A DNA stretch of 7,951 bases from an uncultured Verrucomicrobiota bacterium (GTDB lineage: Bacteria > Verrucomicrobiota > Kiritimatiellia > RFP12 > UBA1067). The position numbers and the translations under genes were made by a program. Below the pieces are notes generated by a model that searched no databases, was not told the origin of the DNA, and was given only the letters and a program-made list of their open reading frames with translations. The stretch is from positions 1 through 7,951 of the forward strand of contig CAMPAF010000130.1 of the NCBI GenBank assembly GCA_946631535.1, read 5' to 3'. Positions 3 to 7,847 of the stretch are shown one piece after another; the first letter of the stretch is position 1, and each line of letters starts with the position of its first letter.

Positions 3-1679
3 CGTACCGCCGCCGCCCTCGGCCTCGCCGCCCGCAACGCAGAGGTGGCGGACGCCGCGCTCGGCGAGGTGTTCCACCACGTGGAAAACATGCCTCCGTC
101 GAAGCGCGACACCGAACTGCTTTCCGCCCTGCTGCCGTACTACGGCCGCCTCGCCGCCAACCAGGAGATGTCCCTCGACAGGGTCGCGGAGGTCAACGGC
201 GTGCTCGGCATCTGCGCCTTCAGGTCCGGCGACTTCGAGCTGGCGGAGAAGGCGTTCCGCCGCCTCGTGGAGATACGCCCGTCGGCGACCGCGCTCAACC
301 GCCTTGCAGAGACTCTTCGCCGCCGCGGGCGCACAGAGGAGGCCGCTGTGTTCGCGCAGCGCGTGGCGGACGGCTACGCGCGCACGACGAACGTGGTGGA
401 CCGCTACGAGGCCGCGCTGGCCCTAGAGTCGCTGAGCCGCCAGAAAGGCCGCTCGGTTGACCGCAAGCTGGCCTTCGCGCTCGCGAAGATGCTTAGGGAG
501 GCAGAGCCGGACAACCCCGACTTCCGCTTCCTGTACGCCCGCCTGCTCGCGGAGTCGCCGAGCCTAGAGAGACCGTCCGACGGCACCGACACGGCGCGCA
601 GCGCCTTCGCGCTTCTCAGCGACCTCGCCGCCGACTATCCCGACCGCCCCGAGTACGGCAAGGCGCTCGTCACCGCCATGGACCGGCGCCTCAAGGCTGG
701 CTCGGCGTTCAAGAAGATAGACCGCGCCGACGTGGAGCTGGCGCTCGACACGGCAGACCGCCTCCTCGGACGCTTCCCGAACGTCCCCGAGATCGTCTCG
801 TCCGTCATTGCCTTCCGCGACACGTATTCCGCCTACCTGCGCAAGCTTGGCGACCAGCGCAACGCCAGCCGCGAGAGCCTGCGCACCACAGGCATGCTCG
901 AGCTACTCTCCCACAACGCCGAGTCTCCTGACGCCGCGCGCCACACCTTCAACGGCAGAAGCGCAAACATCCCGTACCGGCAGATCACGACCGGCTCCAG
1001 CTCGTACGAGGACACCACCCTCATCCTGGCACTCCACGACCGTTCGCTCAACGGCAGCGACAACGTGCGCCAGACGACGGTTCCTTTCCTGCGCACGCTG
1101 GTGACATACGCCGAGAAGAAAGGACGGAAGACCGTCATCCTCCTGCCGCAATGCCCCAACGGACGCGAGAGCAACTGGCTTGGCGCGCGCAAGGGCCGCC
1201 GCGACGGCCTTCTGAAGGACATCGCCAGGCTCGTCCAGGAAAAGACGAACGAGTTCAGTGTCGTATCCGACCGCACCTTTGTCGTCGGTGTCGACAGCGG
1301 AGGCGACGCCTGCTGGCCGCTCCTGGCGGACAATCCGTCACTTTTCTCCCGCGCGCTGGTCGCAGGGGCGGCGCCAGTTCCTGCGTCCGCCGCCACGAAC
1401 ATCATCGCGGCGGTACGCATCGTCCAAGGGGAAAGCGACCGTCTTCATCCCGAATCGTCCGTCCGCGCCGCCGCCGAGCGCATCGGCGGAGAGAACGGTC
1501 CTTTCGCCGAGGTGGACCTGCAGCTCGGCAGCACGCACAAGACTGTCGTGGACAACGCCTTCAGCGACGACGCGCTCGAATGGCTGATGAACCCTCAGCC
1601 CCCATCCGATGAGCCGCCGCCATTCCCGCCGTCCGAGATGTACACGCCCGCCGCGATGGTGTTCGGCACCAACGAGTGA
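3..1679 (+). CDS. TPR protein with C-terminal alpha/beta-hydrolase-like domain (5' end outside window)
   Basis: The frame is open from the first complete codon at base 3 to TGA at 1677-1679. The GTG at 45 is probably an internal valine, because reading continues upstream without a stop and no ribosome site precedes it. Counting that GTG as residue 1, residues about 50-110 form two TPR-like helical repeats (LGICAFRSGDFELAEKAF; then ALNRLAETLRRRGRTEEAA). Residues 190-290 continue in the helical style seen in planctomycete-type TPR proteins (ADYPDRPEY, RFPNVPE). Residues about 320-515 resemble the esterase/dienelactone-hydrolase fold: LALHDRSLNGSDN at the oxyanion-hole position, LLPQCP, VVGVDSGGDACW at the nucleophile elbow, GESD (D465) and GSTHKT (H498). 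Family members normally have HG and GxSxG; here they read HD and GVDSG, so D417 replaces the Ser. It may be a pseudo-hydrolase or use Asp. The tail is proline-rich. The missing N-terminus could hold a kinase or another domain. The gene is confident; its function is not. Confidence 0.85.
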   Translation, partial: RTAAALGLAARNAEVADAALGEVFHHVENMPPSKRDTELLSALLPYYGRLAANQEMSLDRVAEVNGVLGICAFRSGDFELAEKAFRRLVEIRPSATALNRLAETLRRRGRTEEAAVFAQRVADGYARTTNVVDRYEAALALESLSRQKGRSVDRKLAFALAKMLREAEPDNPDFRFLYARLLAESPSLERPSDGTDTARSAFALLSDLAADYPDRPEYGKALVTAMDRRLKAGSAFKKIDRADVELALDTADRLLGRFPNVPEIVSSVIAFRDTYSAYLRKLGDQRNASRESLRTTGMLELLSHNAESPDAARHTFNGRSANIPYRQITTGSSSYEDTTLILALHDRSLNGSDNVRQTTVPFLRTLVTYAEKKGRKTVILLPQCPNGRESNWLGARKGRRDGLLKDIARLVQEKTNEFSVVSDRTFVVGVDSGGDACWPLLADNPSLFSRALVAGAAPVPASAATNIIAAVRIVQGESDRLHPESSVRAAAERIGGENGPFAEVDLQLGSTHKTVVDNAFSDDALEWLMNPQPPSDEPPPFPPSEMYTPAAMVFGTNE

Positions 1680-1681
1680 CG

Positions 1682-1698
1682 ACGCCGTCTAGCGGCGT
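1682..1698. terminator. Short stem-loop between convergent genes
   Basis: ACGCCG and CGGCGT form a perfect 6-bp stem around a 5-base loop. The element lies just after the stop of the plus-strand TPR/hydrolase gene and overlaps the last codons of the minus-strand nitrilase gene. Its position suits a shared bidirectional terminator. However, the stem is short and no T-run follows on either side, so factor-independent termination is doubtful. Confidence 0.3.
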
Positions 1699-3029
1699 GG
1701 ACGGCGAAGATCCTGCTTCTCGTAGAGCTCGGGACGGCTCTCGTCGATGTAGAGCTCGTAGGGATCGCCCGCGCCGGCGCCGACCGAGAGCCAGAACGTG
1801 CGCTTGCGCTCGTTCAGGTCGAGGTCCGCCCACGCGAAGCCGCCGTCCTCGAACGTCTTCACGAGCCACGTCCCGTCGCGGTCGATGATGCCGTTGGGCA
1901 GATGTCCCTGGCGCATCGAGACGAGCGTCGGGATGCCGATGTCGATGCCACGGGCGGGGAACGTGATGTCCACGTGGTCGGGCGCGCAGCCCGCGAGCGG
2001 GAAGAGCAGCAGCTCCGCGCCCTTCCGGCGCAGGTATTTCGCCGTCTCCGAGAACCAGTGGTCCCAGCATGTGAGGCAGCCCACGCGCCCGAAGTCGAGG
2101 TCGAAGACGCCGAAGTCGTCGCCGGGCAGGAGCCCCGCCATGTACTCGCCGCTCGTGAGCGTCGTCTTGCGGTACGTGCCCACATGCTTGCCCTCGCGGT
2201 CGACGATGAACGTGGAGTTGTGGAACGTCCCCGCGTCGGTGCGCTCGCGAATGTTCATCGCGATGTTGCAGCGGTACTTCACGGCATAGCGCGCGGCGAG
2301 CGCGAAGGAGGGTCCGCCCGGAATGCGCTCGGCCGTCCGCTCCGGGCAGGGCGACCCCGTGTCCGCGAACACTTCGGAGAAGAGGATGATGTCGGGATGC
2401 TCGACGTGCGCGAAGATGTTGGTGAGGCAGTCTTCGATCTGCTTCAGCCGCCCCTTCACCACCGCCTCCGGGTCGTCCCAGCTCTTGGGGCGTTTCTCAT
2501 GCGGGTTGCCCACCACGCACCGCACCTTGCGCGGCTTCGGCGCGTCCACCGTCTCCACGCGCACGTCGCGGATCTTCACGTCCATCTTATGCCACTTCGC
2601 GATGAACTCCACCCGCACCGTGTTGCAGTCGCCCGGCACGGCGAACGTGTCGTCGAACACGCGGACGTTCCCCTTGTCCGTGTACCGCATGAAGTCGCGC
2701 TGGTAGAACCTCACGCCCTTACGGTTGCCCCTCGCCGGATCGTACCACGTCACGAACAGCATGACGTCGTTGTACGGCGCGGCCTCGCCCGCGCCGAGCG
2801 CGATCTCCGCCGTGGCCGTGAAGCGCACGCCCTTACCTGGCGTCACCGGAAACTCCTTCTCCCACCAGGCGCACGCGCGTTTCGACGGCAGGGACATCTC
2901 AAGCCGCCCGCCGGCCTCGCGCCCCGTCGCCGGATCGGGCGAGAGCTTCGCGTTCTGAAACGCCCACTCGCCGGCGCACGCGCCCAGCGCGAGCCCCGCT
3001 AATGCCATGAGCATGACCAGTTTCTTCAT
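1689..3029 (-). CDS. Exported carbon-nitrogen hydrolase (nitrilase superfamily) with N-terminal beta domain
   Basis: This 446-residue protein starts at ATG 3029. AAAGGA lies 7 bases upstream, and a signal peptide begins directly (MKKLVMLMALAGLALGAC). LGAC with Cys18 fits a lipobox, so the mature protein may be a lipoprotein; signal peptidase I cleavage near ACA-G is the alternative. Residues about 21-165 look like a beta-sandwich, possibly carbohydrate-binding. Residues about 168-420 are a nitrilase fold carrying the family's Glu-Lys-Cys triad: E219 in ILFSEVF, K288 in YRKTTL and C321 in VGCLTCWDHWFSE, with the accessory E295 in TSGEY. Family members hydrolyse nitriles or amides, including N-carbamoyl compounds; the substrate here cannot be read from sequence. 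It is the last gene of a three-gene operon and begins one base after the preceding small ORF's stop. Extending the frame upstream to 3158 adds an implausible Arg-rich leader, so that start was rejected. Confidence 0.92.
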   Translation of the reverse strand: MKKLVMLMALAGLALGACAGEWAFQNAKLSPDPATGREAGGRLEMSLPSKRACAWWEKEFPVTPGKGVRFTATAEIALGAGEAAPYNDVMLFVTWYDPARGNRKGVRFYQRDFMRYTDKGNVRVFDDTFAVPGDCNTVRVEFIAKWHKMDVKIRDVRVETVDAPKPRKVRCVVGNPHEKRPKSWDDPEAVVKGRLKQIEDCLTNIFAHVEHPDIILFSEVFADTGSPCPERTAERIPGGPSFALAARYAVKYRCNIAMNIRERTDAGTFHNSTFIVDREGKHVGTYRKTTLTSGEYMAGLLPGDDFGVFDLDFGRVGCLTCWDHWFSETAKYLRRKGAELLLFPLAGCAPDHVDITFPARGIDIGIPTLVSMRQGHLPNGIIDRDGTWLVKTFEDGGFAWADLDLNERKRTFWLSVGAGAGDPYELYIDESRPELYEKQDLRRPRR

Positions 3030-3030
3030 C

Positions 3031-3210
3031 TCATTGTCCTTTCTGATCTTCCGTAAAGAACCCTGGGGTCGTTGAATCCTCCCAGTCGCAGCCAGCACGA
3101 GTTGCGATCTTCTCCTCCGCCGTGCGCGCCGGCGGATAGACCGTGAGCTTTTCCGCATGCGTCGCCCACACGGCGGCCACGATCAAGAACACTGACGTTT
3201 TCTTTATCAT
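3031..3210 (-). CDS. Small secreted protein, 59 residues, unknown function
   Basis: ATG at 3210 follows the TGA of the large upstream gene by one base (TGATATG). Its own TGA at 3033-3031 precedes the nitrilase ATG by one base (TGAGATG), which is classic spacing for translational coupling. The N-terminus is a convincing signal peptide: MIKK, then the hydrophobic SVFLIVAAVWA, then a THA-E cleavage site. The mature part is about 40 residues, beginning EKLTVYPPARTAEEK, with one Cys (C41) in RAGCDWED. I recognise no family. The first half uses the GC-rich codons of its neighbours, while the second half uses mixed codons (ACT, CGT, TCA, GGA). The ORF may therefore be the truncated start of a once longer exported protein that now serves as a coupling leader. 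No independent ribosome site is visible before it. Confidence 0.6.
   Translation of the reverse strand: MIKKTSVFLIVAAVWATHAEKLTVYPPARTAEEKIATRAGCDWEDSTTPGFFTEDQKGQ
3037..3042 (-). promoter_or_regulatory. Ribosome binding site of the nitrilase-family gene
   Basis: AAAGGA lies 7 bases before ATG 3029 and inside the final codons of the 59-residue ORF. It fixes the start at 3029, where the signal peptide begins, over the upstream in-frame ATG at 3158. Ribosomes finishing the small ORF would pass directly over it. Confidence 0.7.
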
Positions 3211-3211
3211 A

Positions 3212-6200
3212 TCAGCGGATGATCACGGTCATGCCCACGGCGCCGAGGCGGACGGAGTTGCCGTCCACGAAAATGACCGCCTCGGGCTGGCTGCATGTGG
3301 GCGTGCCCGTGATCGAGCCGGCCGTCACGAGCGTGAGCGAACCCTTGCCCTTGTTCGCCAGGTTGTCCACCGTGATCTCCACGCCCGTGAGGTCGAGCGG
3401 TCCGTTCACAGCCAGCTGCCCGCACGTGCCGTCCTCGCCGAGAACGTACGCCAGCTTCGCGGGCGCGAACGTGGCGCCCTTCACCGTGAGCGTCCCCGCG
3501 TCGGGATAGCCCGGCCACACCGTCCCCGTCACCGTCAGCGTGCCGTTCGTCACGAGGCCGCTTCCCATCAGGTTCGCGACGGTGTGCGACTTCTCGGAGA
3601 GGTTAACCACCGCGTTCGCCGCGACGCGCAGCGTGGTCGTAGCGGGCAGGCTCTGCGCGTCCGTCACGGCCAGCGTGCCGTTCGAGACACACGTGGCGCA
3701 GAGGTAGGTGTTCGTGCCGTGCAGCGTGAGCGTGCCCGCGCCTACCTTCGTGAACGCAGGTGCCGCCGCGAGCGCGGCCGCCGTTCCGTCCACGTCCCAT
3801 GTCTGACCGTCCCGCGCGGCGAAGTCCTGCGACACCTTGAGGTTGAAGCCCGCCGTGTCCAGCGTCGCGCCGCCCACGCCCACGGACGCCGCCGTGAAGC
3901 CGTAGAGGAAGTCCTCCGACGCGCTCGTGTTGGCCACGAGCGTGCCGCCGTCGAGGACGAGCGTGGACGCGTCGTTCGTGCACGTGCTGTACAGGCACCG
4001 CGCCTTCAACGTGCCGTTCGTGAGGATGAGGGCCGTGCCGTTGCGGACGGTCGAGACCGCGTTGTTCGGCGACACGCAGACGGAACCGTTCACCTCCGCC
4101 AGCCCGCCGCCCGAGACTTCCAACGTGCCATGTCCCTGATAGGCCACGTAGAGCGCTCCGCCGTTGTATGGCATCTTGAACGAGCCGCCGCGCACGTAGA
4201 GGTTCCCCGTGTCGCGGCCGCTCGTCTTGTCTTCGTGCCCGCCCGCGCAGTAGCGTCCGAGATATCCATAGTTGCTGCGCATGATCGCTTCGCCCCCGTA
4301 GATGAACAGATTGCCGGTCGGCGATCCGTTCGCGGTGTTGATGCCGATGTGGAACCCCCTGCCGGCCGTCTTACCAGTCTGTTCAAGCGTCCCGCCATAA
4401 AGATAGTAGCTGCACGTGCCGCTCCCATGGCTTCCAATCCTAAACGCCCCCGTTGCCGCGTTTGAGACCTTCACAGTGCCGCTATACTGGCGGATGTCGC
4501 CGTGCCGGCCATAGAAATAGCCCGTCGTCAAGTTCGTGCCGTTTGTGATGATCAGGTTGGGCTTCCCGTAGTTGCTGCCGGAGCTGTAATACCCCGGATA
4601 GACGTAATGGTTGGAGTCCACCGTCATGGTCGTATTGTCAAGAATCACCGTCGCCACCTTGGTGATGCGATTCCCCGGGTAAAAGCTGCCGGCACTCGTC
4701 ACGGATCCGCCGACGATTCGCAGGTCCGTCCCCCCATGCGTCGTCAGGCCCGCCAGGTTCACCACGGCGTTTGAAAACACGACCTGCGCGCTGTTCGTCA
4801 CCGTTATCCAGCCCGTTGCCGTAAACGTGGTGTTGGTCACGAGCGTCAGGCCGTTGCCCCCAATCTGGACTGCCTTCAGAGTGTTCGTCCCGTCCAGTGC
4901 GAGCGTGCCGTCGCCCCTTCTGATAAAGGCGTTGTCGTTCGAGATGCATCCCTTGACGATCGCCGTTCCCGCGCACACCGCAAGTTCAAGGGAGTTGCTG
5001 GGACCCCAGAGGCTGTCGATTCCGTTCTCCAGCGTCAGCGTGTCCGTGGCGTAGGCGTCGTTCAGGAATAGCTTCTTCAGCGCATATACCTCGTTGCTCG
5101 CGACGAGCGGTTTCGACGGATCGTCGCCGAGGCGCACCGTCAGCGGATGACCGTAGGCCGAGAACCCGGCGGTTTCGGCGTCTGCGGCCACCAGCAGCTG
5201 ACCGTCCGGATCGCCGAACGTGCCCGTGAACGTCTCGGAGCCGAGCGGACAGTACGTGCCGCCGTTGAGGACGAGGTTGTCCGTGGCGGCCAGGCCCTGC
5301 CCGAAATCGGCCACGAGCGTACCCTCGTAGACCGTGAACGTGCCGCCCCAGTTGTTCGCGCCCGTGAGCGTCAGCGGCGCGGGGCCGCGCTTCGAACCGC
5401 CGTTCGCGAACGTCAACGCCGCCGATTCGACGAATGGCAGCTGCGTGACGTAGTCGGGCACCGCCTGCGACCAGAACGCGGACGCGCCTGCAACCACGTC
5501 GCCCACCTCCGCGCCGCCGACCACGCGCGCGCCCACCGCCGTCAGCGCCGTCGAGCCGCTTGAGGGGTTGAACGTGTTGTTCACGGTGTCGAACAGTCCG
5601 GCCACGCCGCCATACACGCACGGACGGTAGTTGCGCACGCACACGCCGTCATTGGTGATGACGCAGGAGTAGATGGTGGCGCCGGCTGGCTTGTCGATCG
5701 TCGTGTCGGTTTTCGCGCGTCCGAACAACGCGAGGTTGTACGAGGCCGTCTTTGAATGTGCCTCCGTAGAGGTCCGCGAAGCCGAACCGCTCGGCGTCGT
5801 GACCGTGAATACCGAAGCCGCCTTACCGTCCACAACGGCCGTCGTGTCGAGCGTGATCTGCGTACGCTCCGTCGAGGATTCCAGCGTGGTGGGATTCTTC
5901 CAAGAGCCACCACCGTTGTTGCTGGAGAACGCCCAGAGCCCGACGCTTGAGCTGCCGTTCACGTAGGCGCACAGCGAATAATTGTTGTTGACGCCGAATA
6001 TGTACTGCTGGCCGTCTGTATCCGTCAGGGCGAAGTCGATGGTGACAACTGTCTTCCCGCCGACCGGCTTGAACCCCGTGCTGACGAAGCAGCTTGTGCT
6101 TTTCGTCGACTTGACGCCCTCGACGAGATAGTCGTACATCTTCGTGGAGGAGGCGAGGAACGCGCGGCAGGCGTACTGGCCCGTCAGGGACGCGGCGGCT

Positions 6201-6460
6201 GGCAACGCGAACTCGTAGCTCGTCGCGTCGTCGGCCACGCGGTCCACGCGGAAGGCGTTCGGCCAGGCGAAGAGGTCGGCTCCCTTGTCAACGCCGTCGG
6301 TGCTCCACACGTAGTAGAGGACGTGCGAATCGCCCTCCGTCCCGGCCTCGAACGTCACCGTGGCGGTGCCGTCCGCCACCGTCAAATTCGTCATGTCGCG
6401 GGCCGCCGCGCCGAGCGACACCGCCGCGATCAGCGCGACCAAAGCAATCTGTCTCCTCAT
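3212..6460 (-). CDS. Secreted LamG-like / autotransporter-type beta-strand repeat protein ending in GMTVIIR
   Basis: This protein has 1082 residues. ATG 6460 was chosen because AAGGAG lies 8 bases upstream and a signal peptide follows at once (MRRQIALVALIAAVSLGAAA-RD). ATG 6481 would add MHEGAQE and has no ribosome site. Residues about 115-305 look like the LamG/concanavalin-A-type domain common in gut and rumen secreted proteins (VTIDFALTDTDGQQYIFG; CVRNYRPCVYGGVAGLFDTV). Passenger-associated beta-strand repeats follow at about 358-408 (LTLTGANNWGGTFTVYEGTL), 515-565 (GDGTLALDGTNTL) and 905-955 (GAGTLTLHGTNTY). Between them is a Gly/Thr/Asn-rich region that is probably a right-handed beta-helix. 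No autotransporter barrel or PEP-CTERM anchor is present; the protein simply stops at VRLGAVGMTVIIR. Surface adhesion or glycan contact is inferred. It is the first gene of the operon, read from the promoter at 6496-6525. Confidence 0.92.
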   Translation of the reverse strand: MRRQIALVALIAAVSLGAAARDMTNLTVADGTATVTFEAGTEGDSHVLYYVWSTDGVDKGADLFAWPNAFRVDRVADDATSYEFALPAAASLTGQYACRAFLASSTKMYDYLVEGVKSTKSTSCFVSTGFKPVGGKTVVTIDFALTDTDGQQYIFGVNNNYSLCAYVNGSSSVGLWAFSSNNGGGSWKNPTTLESSTERTQITLDTTAVVDGKAASVFTVTTPSGSASRTSTEAHSKTASYNLALFGRAKTDTTIDKPAGATIYSCVITNDGVCVRNYRPCVYGGVAGLFDTVNNTFNPSSGSTALTAVGARVVGGAEVGDVVAGASAFWSQAVPDYVTQLPFVESAALTFANGGSKRGPAPLTLTGANNWGGTFTVYEGTLVADFGQGLAATDNLVLNGGTYCPLGSETFTGTFGDPDGQLLVAADAETAGFSAYGHPLTVRLGDDPSKPLVASNEVYALKKLFLNDAYATDTLTLENGIDSLWGPSNSLELAVCAGTAIVKGCISNDNAFIRRGDGTLALDGTNTLKAVQIGGNGLTLVTNTTFTATGWITVTNSAQVVFSNAVVNLAGLTTHGGTDLRIVGGSVTSAGSFYPGNRITKVATVILDNTTMTVDSNHYVYPGYYSSGSNYGKPNLIITNGTNLTTGYFYGRHGDIRQYSGTVKVSNAATGAFRIGSHGSGTCSYYLYGGTLEQTGKTAGRGFHIGINTANGSPTGNLFIYGGEAIMRSNYGYLGRYCAGGHEDKTSGRDTGNLYVRGGSFKMPYNGGALYVAYQGHGTLEVSGGGLAEVNGSVCVSPNNAVSTVRNGTALILTNGTLKARCLYSTCTNDASTLVLDGGTLVANTSASEDFLYGFTAASVGVGGATLDTAGFNLKVSQDFAARDGQTWDVDGTAAALAAAPAFTKVGAGTLTLHGTNTYLCATCVSNGTLAVTDAQSLPATTTLRVAANAVVNLSEKSHTVANLMGSGLVTNGTLTVTGTVWPGYPDAGTLTVKGATFAPAKLAYVLGEDGTCGQLAVNGPLDLTGVEITVDNLANKGKGSLTLVTAGSITGTPTCSQPEAVIFVDGNSVRLGAVGMTVIIR
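3214..3235 (-). repeat. 22-bp exact repeat, copy 1 (codes for GMTVIIR tail)
   Basis: These 22 bases are identical, in the same orientation, to 7850-7871. They cover the seven C-terminal codons GMTVIIR and reach one base into the stop codon. The flanks differ on both sides, and the stops differ too: TGA here, TAG in the other copy. Confidence 0.95.
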
Positions 6461-6468
6461 CTCCTGCG

Positions 6469-6474
6469 CTCCTT
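6469..6474 (-). promoter_or_regulatory. Ribosome binding site of the beta-repeat protein gene
   Basis: AAGGAG lies 8 bases upstream of ATG 6460. It supports that start over ATG 6481, which lies upstream of this site. Confidence 0.7.
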
Positions 6475-6495
6475 CATGCAATTCTTTGTGCGGTT

Positions 6496-6565: not shown

Positions 6566-7837
6566 CTATACCACTTTACAGACCTCGGCGTCGACATTCG
6601 CGAGCGTCGCGCCCTTGTAGTCGATCTCGCACGCGCCCTCGCTGGCGATCAGCTGGGCGATCCGGTTCAAGACCAGCGCATCGATCCGGGTCATCGGCTT
6701 CTCGGCCGGCTGATAGGGCCAGCCAACGGGGGCGAGCATCAGCAGGTTGCCGGCCGCGCAGGATTCAAAAAGCCTGCCGCCCGGCTTGTAGAGCGGCGAA
6801 AAGCCCTTGTTGGCGAGCGTGATCACGCGGTAACCCGCCGCAAAGGCCCGGCGCGCGATCTCGCGCTCGCCCGGGCTGATGCACGGCGAAACAAGCACCG
6901 CACCGCCCTTTCCGGCCGCCAGCGCCGCGGCGAGCTTTTCCTCGAATTCATGCGTGGCGACCGCCGGCGGCGCATCTTTCAGCAGATTCCCGCGCGCATC
7001 GCGGGCGTAGGCGAAATACCGCCGCGAAACCTGGATCTGGTGAAAGGCCGAGCGCGTGAGGAGGAAGTGGTTGCCAATGGCGGAGAAGCGCCCGATGCCC
7101 TCGATTTTCAGCTCGCGGGTCACTTTGAAGAGCTCGGGATGCTCGCGTTTCACGCCGAGCCGCCGCGGATTGTCGCGCAGATAGTGGATAATTCTGGCGA
7201 GCTGCCCCTTGCCGAAAAGGATGGTATCCACATAGCCATCGGCCCAGAAACGCGGGCGCACGCGCCCGCGAGCCGAACCGAGCCCCCCGTTTTGCCCCCC
7301 GCCGCGTGCGGCGTTTTGCTCCTCGCCGCGTGCGGCGAGGCTTCCCAGCCCCCCGCCGCGTGCGGCGTTTTGCTCCTCGCCGCGTGCGGCGAGGCTTCCC
7401 AGCCCCCCGCCGCGTGCGGCGAGGTACTTCCCCACCTCGCTCGTGGATCGCGATTTGAACGAGCCGATGATATTGCCGAGCGATTTGCCCGTGGGCAGCT
7501 GCTCCTTCACAAAGAGCACGCCGTGGAAATGCTCGGGCATGAGCTGATCCTCGATCAATTCCACCTGCGGCCAGCGCACCGCGATCTCGCGCCAGCAGGC
7601 AAGCACGATTCCGCCGATCTCCGTGGGCTCCACGGCCCAATCGCCTTCGCCCCGCTTGACCAGCCGCCCCAGAATGGGCCGGCGGTCTTCCAGCACGATC
7701 GTGATCTCGTAGATGCGCCGCTGGGAATAGTCGAAATCGGGCAGGCGCCGCCCCATGTGCGGCTTCAGCTCGCGCATGAACCGCCCCTGCCCATCGAGCA
7801 CCCACCCCGGCGCGACAAAGCTGCCTTCCTCGCCCAT
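6566..7837 (-). CDS. RAYT-like (REP-associated Y1/HUH) transposase with DprA-like C-terminal domain
   Basis: This protein has 423 residues from ATG 7837; TTG 7846 would add MPA, and neither start has a clear ribosome site. Residues about 10-110 are the Y1-transposase fold, with the metal-binding HUH motif as HFH (residues 103-105, LMPEHFHGVLF). Residues about 198-230 (FWADGYVDTI, then IIHYLRDNPRR) match the RAYT helix, with Y219 as probable catalytic tyrosine. Between them, about residues 139-187, sits a low-complexity AARGGG/AARGEEQN insert encoded by 54-bp DNA repeats. The C-terminal 180 residues (GAVLVSPCISPGEREIARRAF; CAAGNLLMLAPVGWPY) resemble a DprA/SMF Rossmann domain, an architecture I recall from Bacteroidetes RAYT-like proteins. 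Family members nick and join single-stranded DNA at REP hairpins and are usually domesticated single-copy genes. It starts 10 bases after the 33-residue ORF's stop, so the two may be cotranscribed. No inverted repeats bounding a mobile unit were seen. Confidence 0.88.
   Translation of the reverse strand: MGEEGSFVAPGWVLDGQGRFMRELKPHMGRRLPDFDYSQRRIYEITIVLEDRRPILGRLVKRGEGDWAVEPTEIGGIVLACWREIAVRWPQVELIEDQLMPEHFHGVLFVKEQLPTGKSLGNIIGSFKSRSTSEVGKYLAARGGGLGSLAARGEEQNAARGGGLGSLAARGEEQNAARGGGQNGGLGSARGRVRPRFWADGYVDTILFGKGQLARIIHYLRDNPRRLGVKREHPELFKVTRELKIEGIGRFSAIGNHFLLTRSAFHQIQVSRRYFAYARDARGNLLKDAPPAVATHEFEEKLAAALAAGKGGAVLVSPCISPGEREIARRAFAAGYRVITLANKGFSPLYKPGGRLFESCAAGNLLMLAPVGWPYQPAEKPMTRIDALVLNRIAQLIASEGACEIDYKGATLANVDAEVCKVV
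7294..7420. repeat. 54-bp tandem repeat built of GC-rich hairpins, inside the transposase gene
   Basis: Two perfect 54-bp units (7294-7347 and 7348-7401) are followed by the first 19 bases of a third (7402-7420). Each full unit holds a short hairpin (GCCGC-GT-GCGGC) and a long hairpin (CCTCGCCGC-GT-GCGGCGAGG, 9-bp perfect stem, at 7321-7340 and 7375-7394). The 12-base core occurs five times, at 7301, 7325, 7355, 7379 and 7409. The unit is 18 codons long and contains no stop codon in any of the six frames. The hairpins look like REP-type elements. A degenerate partial unit (CCCCCCGTTTTGC) precedes the array at about 7284. Confidence 0.95.
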
Positions 7838-7847
7838 CGCCGGCAAG

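What the first reader, a model, noticed from the sequence alone, without database searches (positions are those of the whole stretch)
7294..7420. REP-like hairpin array inside the reading frame of a RAYT-like transposase
RAYT enzymes act on single-stranded REP hairpins. Here five copies of a GC-rich hairpin core, two with perfect 9-bp stems, sit within the gene itself as 54-bp in-frame tandem units. They encode a flexible AARGGG/AARGEEQN linker between the HUH motif and the catalytic tyrosine helix. The enzyme could bind its own gene or mRNA (autoregulation), or the hairpins could have transposed into it.
Basis: partly seen in the sequence, partly recalled or inferred. Interest (0 to 1): 0.75.

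Follow-up and report, generated by a model that had tools for sequence, protein, structure and literature searches.

The report
Hairpin array inside a transposase gene
A hairpin-handling transposase gene from an uncultured bacterium carries, inside its own coding sequence, repeated DNA hairpins of the kind such enzymes are thought to copy; relatives carry similar hairpins in neighbouring restriction genes or in unrelated housekeeping genes, so this is one case of a known but little-studied kind of mobile DNA that reading frames tolerate.

Summary
Window 7294-7421 is a 54-bp tandem repeat (2.4 copies, 100% identical) with five copies of one hairpin core, two with perfect 9-bp stems. It lies in-frame in a RAYT-like HUH enzyme, in a disordered linker between HUH motif and tyrosine helix. 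The enzyme also has a DprA-like C-terminal domain.

'Only slippage' does not cover the family. In-gene hairpins of differing sequence occur in 63 of 79 related loci, about six times denser than in far flanks. In five related genomes the element (free stem plus tail) also sits in-frame in adjacent type I restriction genes. In three Prevotella-type genomes 19 of 20 copies read outside the transposase lie in reading frames, with empty sites in sister genomes. In the window's two nearest genomes I found no intact copy outside the gene, so the window's array probably grew by local duplication.

In-frame REPs inside RAYT genes are already published (PMC6006769, subclass 2.4). This family does not meet that subclass's motifs, GT[AG]G tag or domain plan. 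New variant of a known kind. Mobilisation by the enzyme is inferred; autoregulation is untested.

The parts
6566..7837 (-). CDS of the RAYT-like HUH enzyme with DprA-like C-terminal domain, 423 aa from the ATG shared with relatives (mechanical ORF extends to a TTG at 7846)
   Evidence: NCBIfam REP_Tyr_transpos 27.3 bits, below its cut-off of 80
7523..7531 (-). HUH motif (HFH, residues 103-105)
   Evidence: sequence; H103 and H105 invariant in 33 sequences
7181..7183 (-). codon of Y219, presumed catalytic tyrosine of YLRDNP, on helix 212-232
   Evidence: nearly invariant column, helix in the model; catalytic role inferred
7256..7390 (-). disordered linker, residues 150-194
   Evidence: pLDDT below 50
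7294..7421 (-). tandem array, 54-bp unit, 2.4 copies (alternating 24- and 30-base units)
7301..7312 (-). hairpin core, unit 5 (last in the gene's direction)
7321..7340 (-). hairpin with perfect 9-bp stem, unit 4; tail AGCAAAAC at 7313-7320
7355..7366 (-). hairpin core, unit 3
7375..7394 (-). hairpin with perfect 9-bp stem, unit 2; tail AGCAAAAC at 7367-7374
7409..7420 (-). hairpin core, unit 1 (first in the gene's direction)
7251..7278 (+). inverted unit: perfect 9-bp hairpin 7251-7270 plus tail AGCCGAAC 7271-7278; same hairpin in L001 and L002
6578..7129 (-). DprA-like C-terminal domain, residues about 237-420

Best explanation
The array is an intragenic, REP-like palindromic element of a RAYT-type HUH enzyme, sitting inside the enzyme's own reading frame. 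One unit is a short stem of free sequence plus a short tail (CRCAGRAC-like in many Kiritimatiellae-type relatives, RGCMRAAC in the window's clade). As single-stranded DNA the hairpin would be cut near its foot and rejoined by the enzyme, preferentially close to its own gene. The unit has no stop codon in the frames in which it is found, so insertions of a multiple of three survive in disordered loops. In the window an inverted pair of elements in the linker has grown by tandem duplication to five forward units facing one inverted unit. Shown: anatomy, in-frame position, predicted disorder, family-wide recurrence, presence in other genes of relatives, empty sites. Inferred: that this enzyme mobilises the hairpin, the cis preference, the cut site, and that the tandem growth is duplication rather than repeated insertion.
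For: In-gene hairpins in 38 of 42 Kiritimatiellae-type and 25 of 37 Bacteroidetes-type loci; per kb in gene / within 300 bp / farther: 1.84/1.62/0.30 and 0.80/0.86/0.14. Where both motifs could be placed (73 of 79 loci), 57 of 102 in-gene hairpins lie between HUH and Y, 3.4 per kb against 0.7 in the rest of the gene. Stems differ between clades but stay complementary. Five RM operons carry the element in hsdM and/or hsdR; 15 of 16 exact tail matches in seven genomes lie at the RAYT/RM locus. The element is read in three frames, so DNA rather than peptide is kept. Prevotella-type genomes: 12 of 14 have matches to the linker hairpin; 19 of 20 copies read outside the RAYT are in ORFs; ProA filled in 3 and empty in 6 of 9 readable genomes. 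Window-clade linkers: 35 distinct strings in 68 readable proteins, 21-57 aa.
Against: No cleavage, binding or movement was observed. In the window's two nearest genomes there is no intact copy outside the gene, and the 54-bp copies are identical, so slippage alone can explain the array as it stands. The tail motif was read off the same hairpins it is then counted on; 42 of 80 in-gene hairpins lack it, and 11 of 72 far hairpins have it. GT[AG]G, the tag of known REPs, is not enriched: 5 of 114 against 5% at random positions. L014 has no linker hairpin. For 14 other loci with a readable linker stem, synonymous shuffles reach the observed value in 0 to 24 of 200, so a few are not significant alone. 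8 of 22 places of the arm-plus-tail pattern in 114 genomes are not at RAYT/RM loci. Most of a bacterial genome is coding, so 19 of 20 shows tolerance of reading frames, not preference. The 20 copies fall into about 11 gene groups shared between genomes, so they are not 20 independent insertions.
Confidence: 0.7

Rival explanations
1. Slippage-driven linker expansion only: a GC-rich coding repeat grows and shrinks by tandem duplication in a disordered loop that tolerates it; the palindrome is a by-product of the codons.
For: 54-bp copies 100% identical; linker lengths vary from 21 to 57 aa in near relatives; no intact copies outside the gene in the two nearest genomes.
Against: Synonymous shuffles of the window gene do not give the stems (0 of 200); hairpins of unrelated sequence at the same place in distant relatives; same element in hsdM, hsdR and, in Prevotella-type genomes, housekeeping genes, in several frames.
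Confidence: 0.12
2. Palindromes made in place: fold-back or template-switch synthesis copies a flank as an inverted arm and seeds local repeats; no transposase is needed.
For: At the hsdM site the left arm CTTTTGCGC is coding sequence that G011 also has without the element; stems differ in sequence between sites.
Against: A shared tail in unrelated genes up to several kb apart and, in Prevotella-type genomes, genome-wide; fold-back synthesis does not bring a common tail. G011 may itself be a deletion product (my reading).
Confidence: 0.1
3. The hairpin is kept as a regulatory or pausing structure in the enzyme's own mRNA or single-stranded DNA (autoregulation).
For: Hairpin at the same linker position with changed sequence in distant relatives; RNA fold z -5.40.
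Against: L014 lacks a linker hairpin but has elements elsewhere in the gene; copies in hsdM, hsdR and housekeeping genes are not explained. Not exclusive of the best explanation.
Confidence: 0.08

Closest known systems
TnpA_Y1 subclass 2.4 (RAYT group 4), PMC6006769 (section 13 in full, other passages)
   Same: REP hairpins inserted in-frame inside the tnpA_REP gene, generally between HuH and Y motifs, in a variable region; insertions in unrelated genes mentioned
   Different: Here DHFH/EHFH, W followed by A, YLRDNP, no GT[AG]G foot, and a DprA-like C-terminal domain
Intragenic GTAG/CGTC REPs, e.g. Opitutus terrae, and Rickettsia RPE-4/RPE-6 (PMC3733652, passages)
   Same: Short palindromes within ORFs of unrelated proteins, reading frame kept
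   Different: Different tag; here the element is also in the gene of an associated RAYT-like enzyme and, in five genomes, in its restriction operon
Rickettsia palindromic elements (PMC10969869, passages)
   Same: In-frame palindromic inserts in many genes
   Different: About 150 bp per that review; no enzyme is named in the passages seen; here 20-40 bp units with a candidate enzyme
Marinomonas REPtrons Ma and Mb (PMC8266576, passages)
   Same: REPs concentrated near their tnpA_REP gene
   Different: GTAG-tagged; the passages seen do not mention REPs inside the gene
IS608/ISDra2 TnpA and E. coli RAYT (2a6o, 2xma, 4er8)
   Different: Long disordered linker and extra C-terminal domain
DprA and ShosA (4ljl, 3uqz, 8zva)
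   Different: There not joined to an HUH core in the matched entries; function here unknown

Membership tests
RAYT / TnpA_REP superfamily | HUH/Y1 core with one tyrosine | tested here: met
   HUH found in 119 of 121 proteins and a Y motif in 120 of 121 (top 120 of 1578 hits plus window); fold matches TnpA and 4er8. NCBIfam model only 27.3 bits, cut-off 80
RAYT / TnpA_REP superfamily | gene flanked by REPs in inverted orientation | tested here: inconclusive
   Hairpins within 300 bp are enriched (1.62 against 0.30 per kb), but the window has none there; its pair is inside the gene
RAYT / TnpA_REP superfamily | 5' GT[AG]G foot on the REP | tested here: not met
   5 of 114 distinct hairpins in or near Kiritimatiellae-type genes, 5% at random positions
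RAYT / TnpA_REP superfamily | specific binding and cleavage of its hairpin as ssDNA | not testable with these tools
   needs biochemistry
TnpA_Y1 subclass 2.4 | REP insertions in the gene between HuH and Y motifs, in-frame | tested here: met
   57 of 102 in-gene hairpins in 73 placed loci lie between the motifs; window in-frame
TnpA_Y1 subclass 2.4 | motifs NH[IFV]H, WQ, YIxNNP | tested here: not met
   EHFH 68, DHFH 48, DHLH 3 and none 2 of 121; W followed by A in the commonest forms; YLRDNP 114 of 121. Motifs of the subclass from its Table 1
TnpA_Y1 subclass 2.4 | no extension after the core domain | tested here: not met
   133-264 residues after the Y motif, median 199; DprA-like fold
TnpA_Y1 subclass 2.4 | canonical or double-foot GT[AG]G REPs | tested here: not met
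   for Kiritimatiellae-type genes; the Prevotella-type element is flanked by GTTC-like and GAAC-like ends in many copies
Rickettsia RPE / intragenic CGTC or GTAG REPs | same repeat sequence family | not tested
   no sequence comparison was made; compared by description only

The most novel reading that the evidence does not exclude
A separate lineage of RAYTs, joined to a DprA-like ssDNA-handling domain and using a GAAC-ended tail instead of GTAG, has REPs that live inside reading frames: in the enzyme's own linker, spread in cis through the type I restriction-modification operon that carries the enzyme, and in Prevotella-type genomes through housekeeping genes. Such a pair of enzyme and element would be a testable model for how reading-frame-friendly palindromes, such as those of Rickettsia, spread.
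Probability: 0.45. Interest if true: 0.7.

Novelty: new variant of a known kind. Interest (0 to 1): 0.5.

Why it matters
Palindromes that sit in-frame inside genes are known from Rickettsia and other bacteria, and the passages I saw do not name an enzyme that moves the Rickettsia ones. Here an element family occurs together with a candidate enzyme whose own gene carries it, with filled and empty sites in related genomes. That makes the mobilisation question testable. It also points to a RAYT-like enzyme with a DprA-like domain inside type I restriction operons; the searches (20 of 560 papers listed; 4 papers; 0 papers) showed no paper on that subject by title and abstract start.

Tried and rejected
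Genome-wide REP family in the window's clade: rejected. The 14-base core is barely above its reversed control (G001 5 against 3, G002 10 against 7), and most of the 30 loci read are ordinary AACG-coding genes. L090 and L097 first looked like unrelated genes but are the RAYT C-terminus and the adjacent hsdR. TTGGGCGCACGCGCCCAA: 4 places in 3 of 22 genomes, all four in RAYT or hsdR genes. Linker hairpins of other members (TGCCGCAAATATGCGGCAG, 3 places; CCGCCGCATACTTGCGGCGG, 3 places) lie in RAYT genes only among 114 genomes.

Led nowhere or limited: 219,920 bp of one Prevotella-type genome (G133, L059 included) searched for its own RAYT hairpin gave only the two RAYT-locus copies, a small part of 3.9 Mb. 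An earlier count said 'all rumen Kiritimatiellae'; the 79 loci also include many Bacteroidota and unnamed bacteria. A tandem GEAQN repeat in G018:C8 has the tail but no perfect hairpin, and the one exact tail match outside the locus (G018:C11) sits in no perfect hairpin. My hsdM frame for G011 was wrong; one search reads it. In one search the ORF finder failed for 12 of 42 sequences and the linker could not be delimited in more, so its density figure was not used; one search uses tblastn extents for all 79. In one search the motifs could not be placed in 6 of 79 loci (19 hairpins left out). In one search, 4 of 13 ProA loci could not be read by my pattern; for the flavodiiron-like gene I read 8 of the 18 rows. 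In one search I read 20 of the 21 exact copies outside the RAYT in G122, G124 and G131; copies with mismatches were not read. The fold lists are mostly HUH cores; other parts are less well tested.

Considered and dropped: a peptide-level function of AARGEEQN (the element is read in three frames); membership in subclass 2.4 (three defining features not met).

Full report
The observation. The array is real and where it was said to be. Tandem Repeats Finder reports 7294-7421, period 54, 2.4 copies, 100% matches. Five copies of the core alternate at 24 and 30 bases, so the 54-base unit is itself two units. Two stems of 9 bp are perfect. It is beyond chance: 12 matches with up to two mismatches against a mean of 1.76 in 200 shuffles, no shuffle reaching 12; DNA fold z -7.06; RNA fold z -5.40; 0 of 200 synonymous-codon shuffles. 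On the gene's strand the two full hairpins are followed by AGCAAAAC. At 7251-7278 lies an inverted unit, so the linker is five forward units facing one inverted unit.

Relatives of the window. The protein search gave 1578 hits, 120 listed; P0001-P0066 are 85-93% identical over at least 90% of the query. Window-type linkers could be read in 68 of 121 proteins (120 hits plus the window): 35 distinct strings of 21-57 aa, the window's being the longest. A scan of one genome per species gave 79 loci, mainly Kiritimatiellae/Verrucomicrobia-type and Bacteroidota bins, many from ruminants; the best are RUG10884 (L001, 90%) and RUG572 (L002, 88%).

Copies elsewhere in the window's clade. No genome is held for the window. 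In the nearest genomes, G001 and G002, arm-plus-tail matches lie only in the RAYT gene (2 and 1). The 20-base hairpin with up to one mismatch is found once in each RAYT gene, plus one imperfect match elsewhere in G001. In this clade the hairpin is essentially private to the gene.

The family. 38 of 42 Kiritimatiellae-type loci (a few are unnamed bacteria) and 25 of 37 Bacteroidetes-type loci hold at least one perfect hairpin of 8 bp or more in the gene; densities in the gene and within 300 bp are five to six times those of farther flanks. In the 73 of 79 loci where both motifs could be placed, 57 of 102 in-gene hairpins lie between HUH and Y, in 46 loci, 3.4 per kb against 0.7 per kb elsewhere in the gene. 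Stem sequences differ between clades but stay complementary: L003 has CTCGTCGCACGCGACGAG where the window has CTCGCCGCACGCGGCGAG. For the 14 other loci with a stem in a readable linker, synonymous shuffles reach the observed value in 0 to 24 of 200, so a few are not significant alone. Many hairpins share a tail: 38 of 80 distinct in-gene and 22 of 36 near hairpins carry CRCAGRAC with at most one mismatch, against 11 of 72 far hairpins and 104 of 8400 random positions. I read the motif off these hairpins, so this is description, not an independent test. GT[AG]G is not enriched (5 of 114).

Restriction operons. In G010, G011, G013, G015 and G110, all in the same family as G001, the RAYT gene stands directly before hsdR in operons with hsdM, hsdS, RhuM, YgjP-like and RadC genes; in G110 the locus is split over two contigs (Pfam for one example of each). 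hsdR has insertions at three sites and hsdM at one; each site is filled in some of the genomes and short in others, and each genome has the element in hsdM, hsdR or both. In G110 one more copy lies in the YgjP-like gene. Exact matches of CGNNNAAGCGCAGAAC: 16 in seven genomes, 15 at this locus; matches with one mismatch number 81 against 64 control matches (up to one mismatch, pattern reversed), so they carry little signal. Across 114 genomes the arm-plus-tail pattern has 22 places, 14 at RAYT/RM loci and 8 elsewhere, against 3 for the reversed pattern. The element is read in three frames, which argues that DNA, not peptide, is kept. At the hsdM site the left arm is coding sequence that G011 also has without the element; that fits formation in place or a target with a ready-made arm, and I leave it open.

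Prevotella-type genomes. In 12 of 14 genomes the linker hairpin TGTTGCTGTANNACAGCAACA (up to two mismatches) has matches, control 2 matches in one genome; the two without are G133, whose RAYT carries another hairpin, and G132, where my scan found none. In G121, G125 and G130 the listed copies are those of the RAYT locus only. I read 20 of the 21 exact copies outside the RAYT in G122, G124 and G131: 19 lie inside ORFs of 290 aa or more, in several frames; one (L265) does not. They fall into about 11 gene groups. Eight of the proteins were scanned and all have Pfam families above cut-off, e.g. methylmalonyl-CoA mutase, GH97, aminotransferase, M24 peptidase, ABC ATPases. ProA holds the element in G122, G124 and G128 and lacks it in six others of nine readable; the flavodiiron-like gene holds it in G122 and G124, in altered form in G128 and perhaps G131, is short in G127 and G129 and has other letters in G126 and G130. 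Since most of a bacterial genome is coding, 19 of 20 shows tolerance, not preference.

Other members. In G134 and G135 a different hairpin (YTCGCCGGAAACGGCGAR, up to one mismatch) has 9 and 7 matches, all on one contig each, the contig numbers being those of the RAYT loci L025 and L030.

What is known. In-frame REPs inside tnpA_REP genes, generally between HuH and Y motifs, were published in 2018 as a feature of subclass 2.4 (PMC6006769; section 13 in full, other passages). Intragenic REPs in several species, and RPE-4/6, are in PMC3733652 (passages). REPs concentrated near their own tnpA are in PMC8266576 (passages). PMC2817692 (passages) describes RAYT genes as flanked by two inverted REPs. 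So the window is not a new phenomenon. It differs from subclass 2.4 in motif residues, in lacking GT[AG]G and in its DprA-like domain, so I do not file it there. Searches for RAYT with DprA (4 papers), RAYT or hsdR terms (560 papers, 20 listed), Prevotella with palindromes (20 papers, 15 listed) and Kiritimatiell* with palindromes and transposase (0) showed, by title and abstract start, no report of the RM or DprA association; preprints and most subscription papers are not in that library.

Verdict. Observation confirmed; interpretation partly supported; mechanism inferred. New variant of a known kind, interest 0.5.

Noticed in passing
window 3212-6481 (-): 1089-aa protein with PATR repeats (PF12951), autotransporter-like, next to the RAYT gene; the relative L001/L186 has a similar neighbour.
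   Followed up: partly
window 1689-3158 (-) and 45-1679 (+): A carbon-nitrogen hydrolase (PF00795) and a TPR-repeat protein.
   Followed up: no
L111, L178-L184 (G010, G011, G013, G015, G110): Type I restriction operons with the RAYT-like gene directly before hsdR, plus RhuM, YgjP-like metallopeptidase and RadC genes; extra genes differ between genomes.
   Followed up: partly
P0094: A 525-aa relative with a precomputed RhuM domain (PF13310): possible RhuM-RAYT fusion.
   Followed up: no
G018:C8:30331-30400 (L218): Three 27-bp tandem units ending in the element's tail (AATQGEAQN) in an open frame, without a perfect hairpin.
   Followed up: no
P0110 (alignment): Internal duplication of about 28 aa in the DprA-like domain.
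   Followed up: no
L025, L028, L029, L076 flanks: Hairpins with the tail also just outside the gene, several in inverted pairs, like ordinary REP arrays.
   Followed up: no
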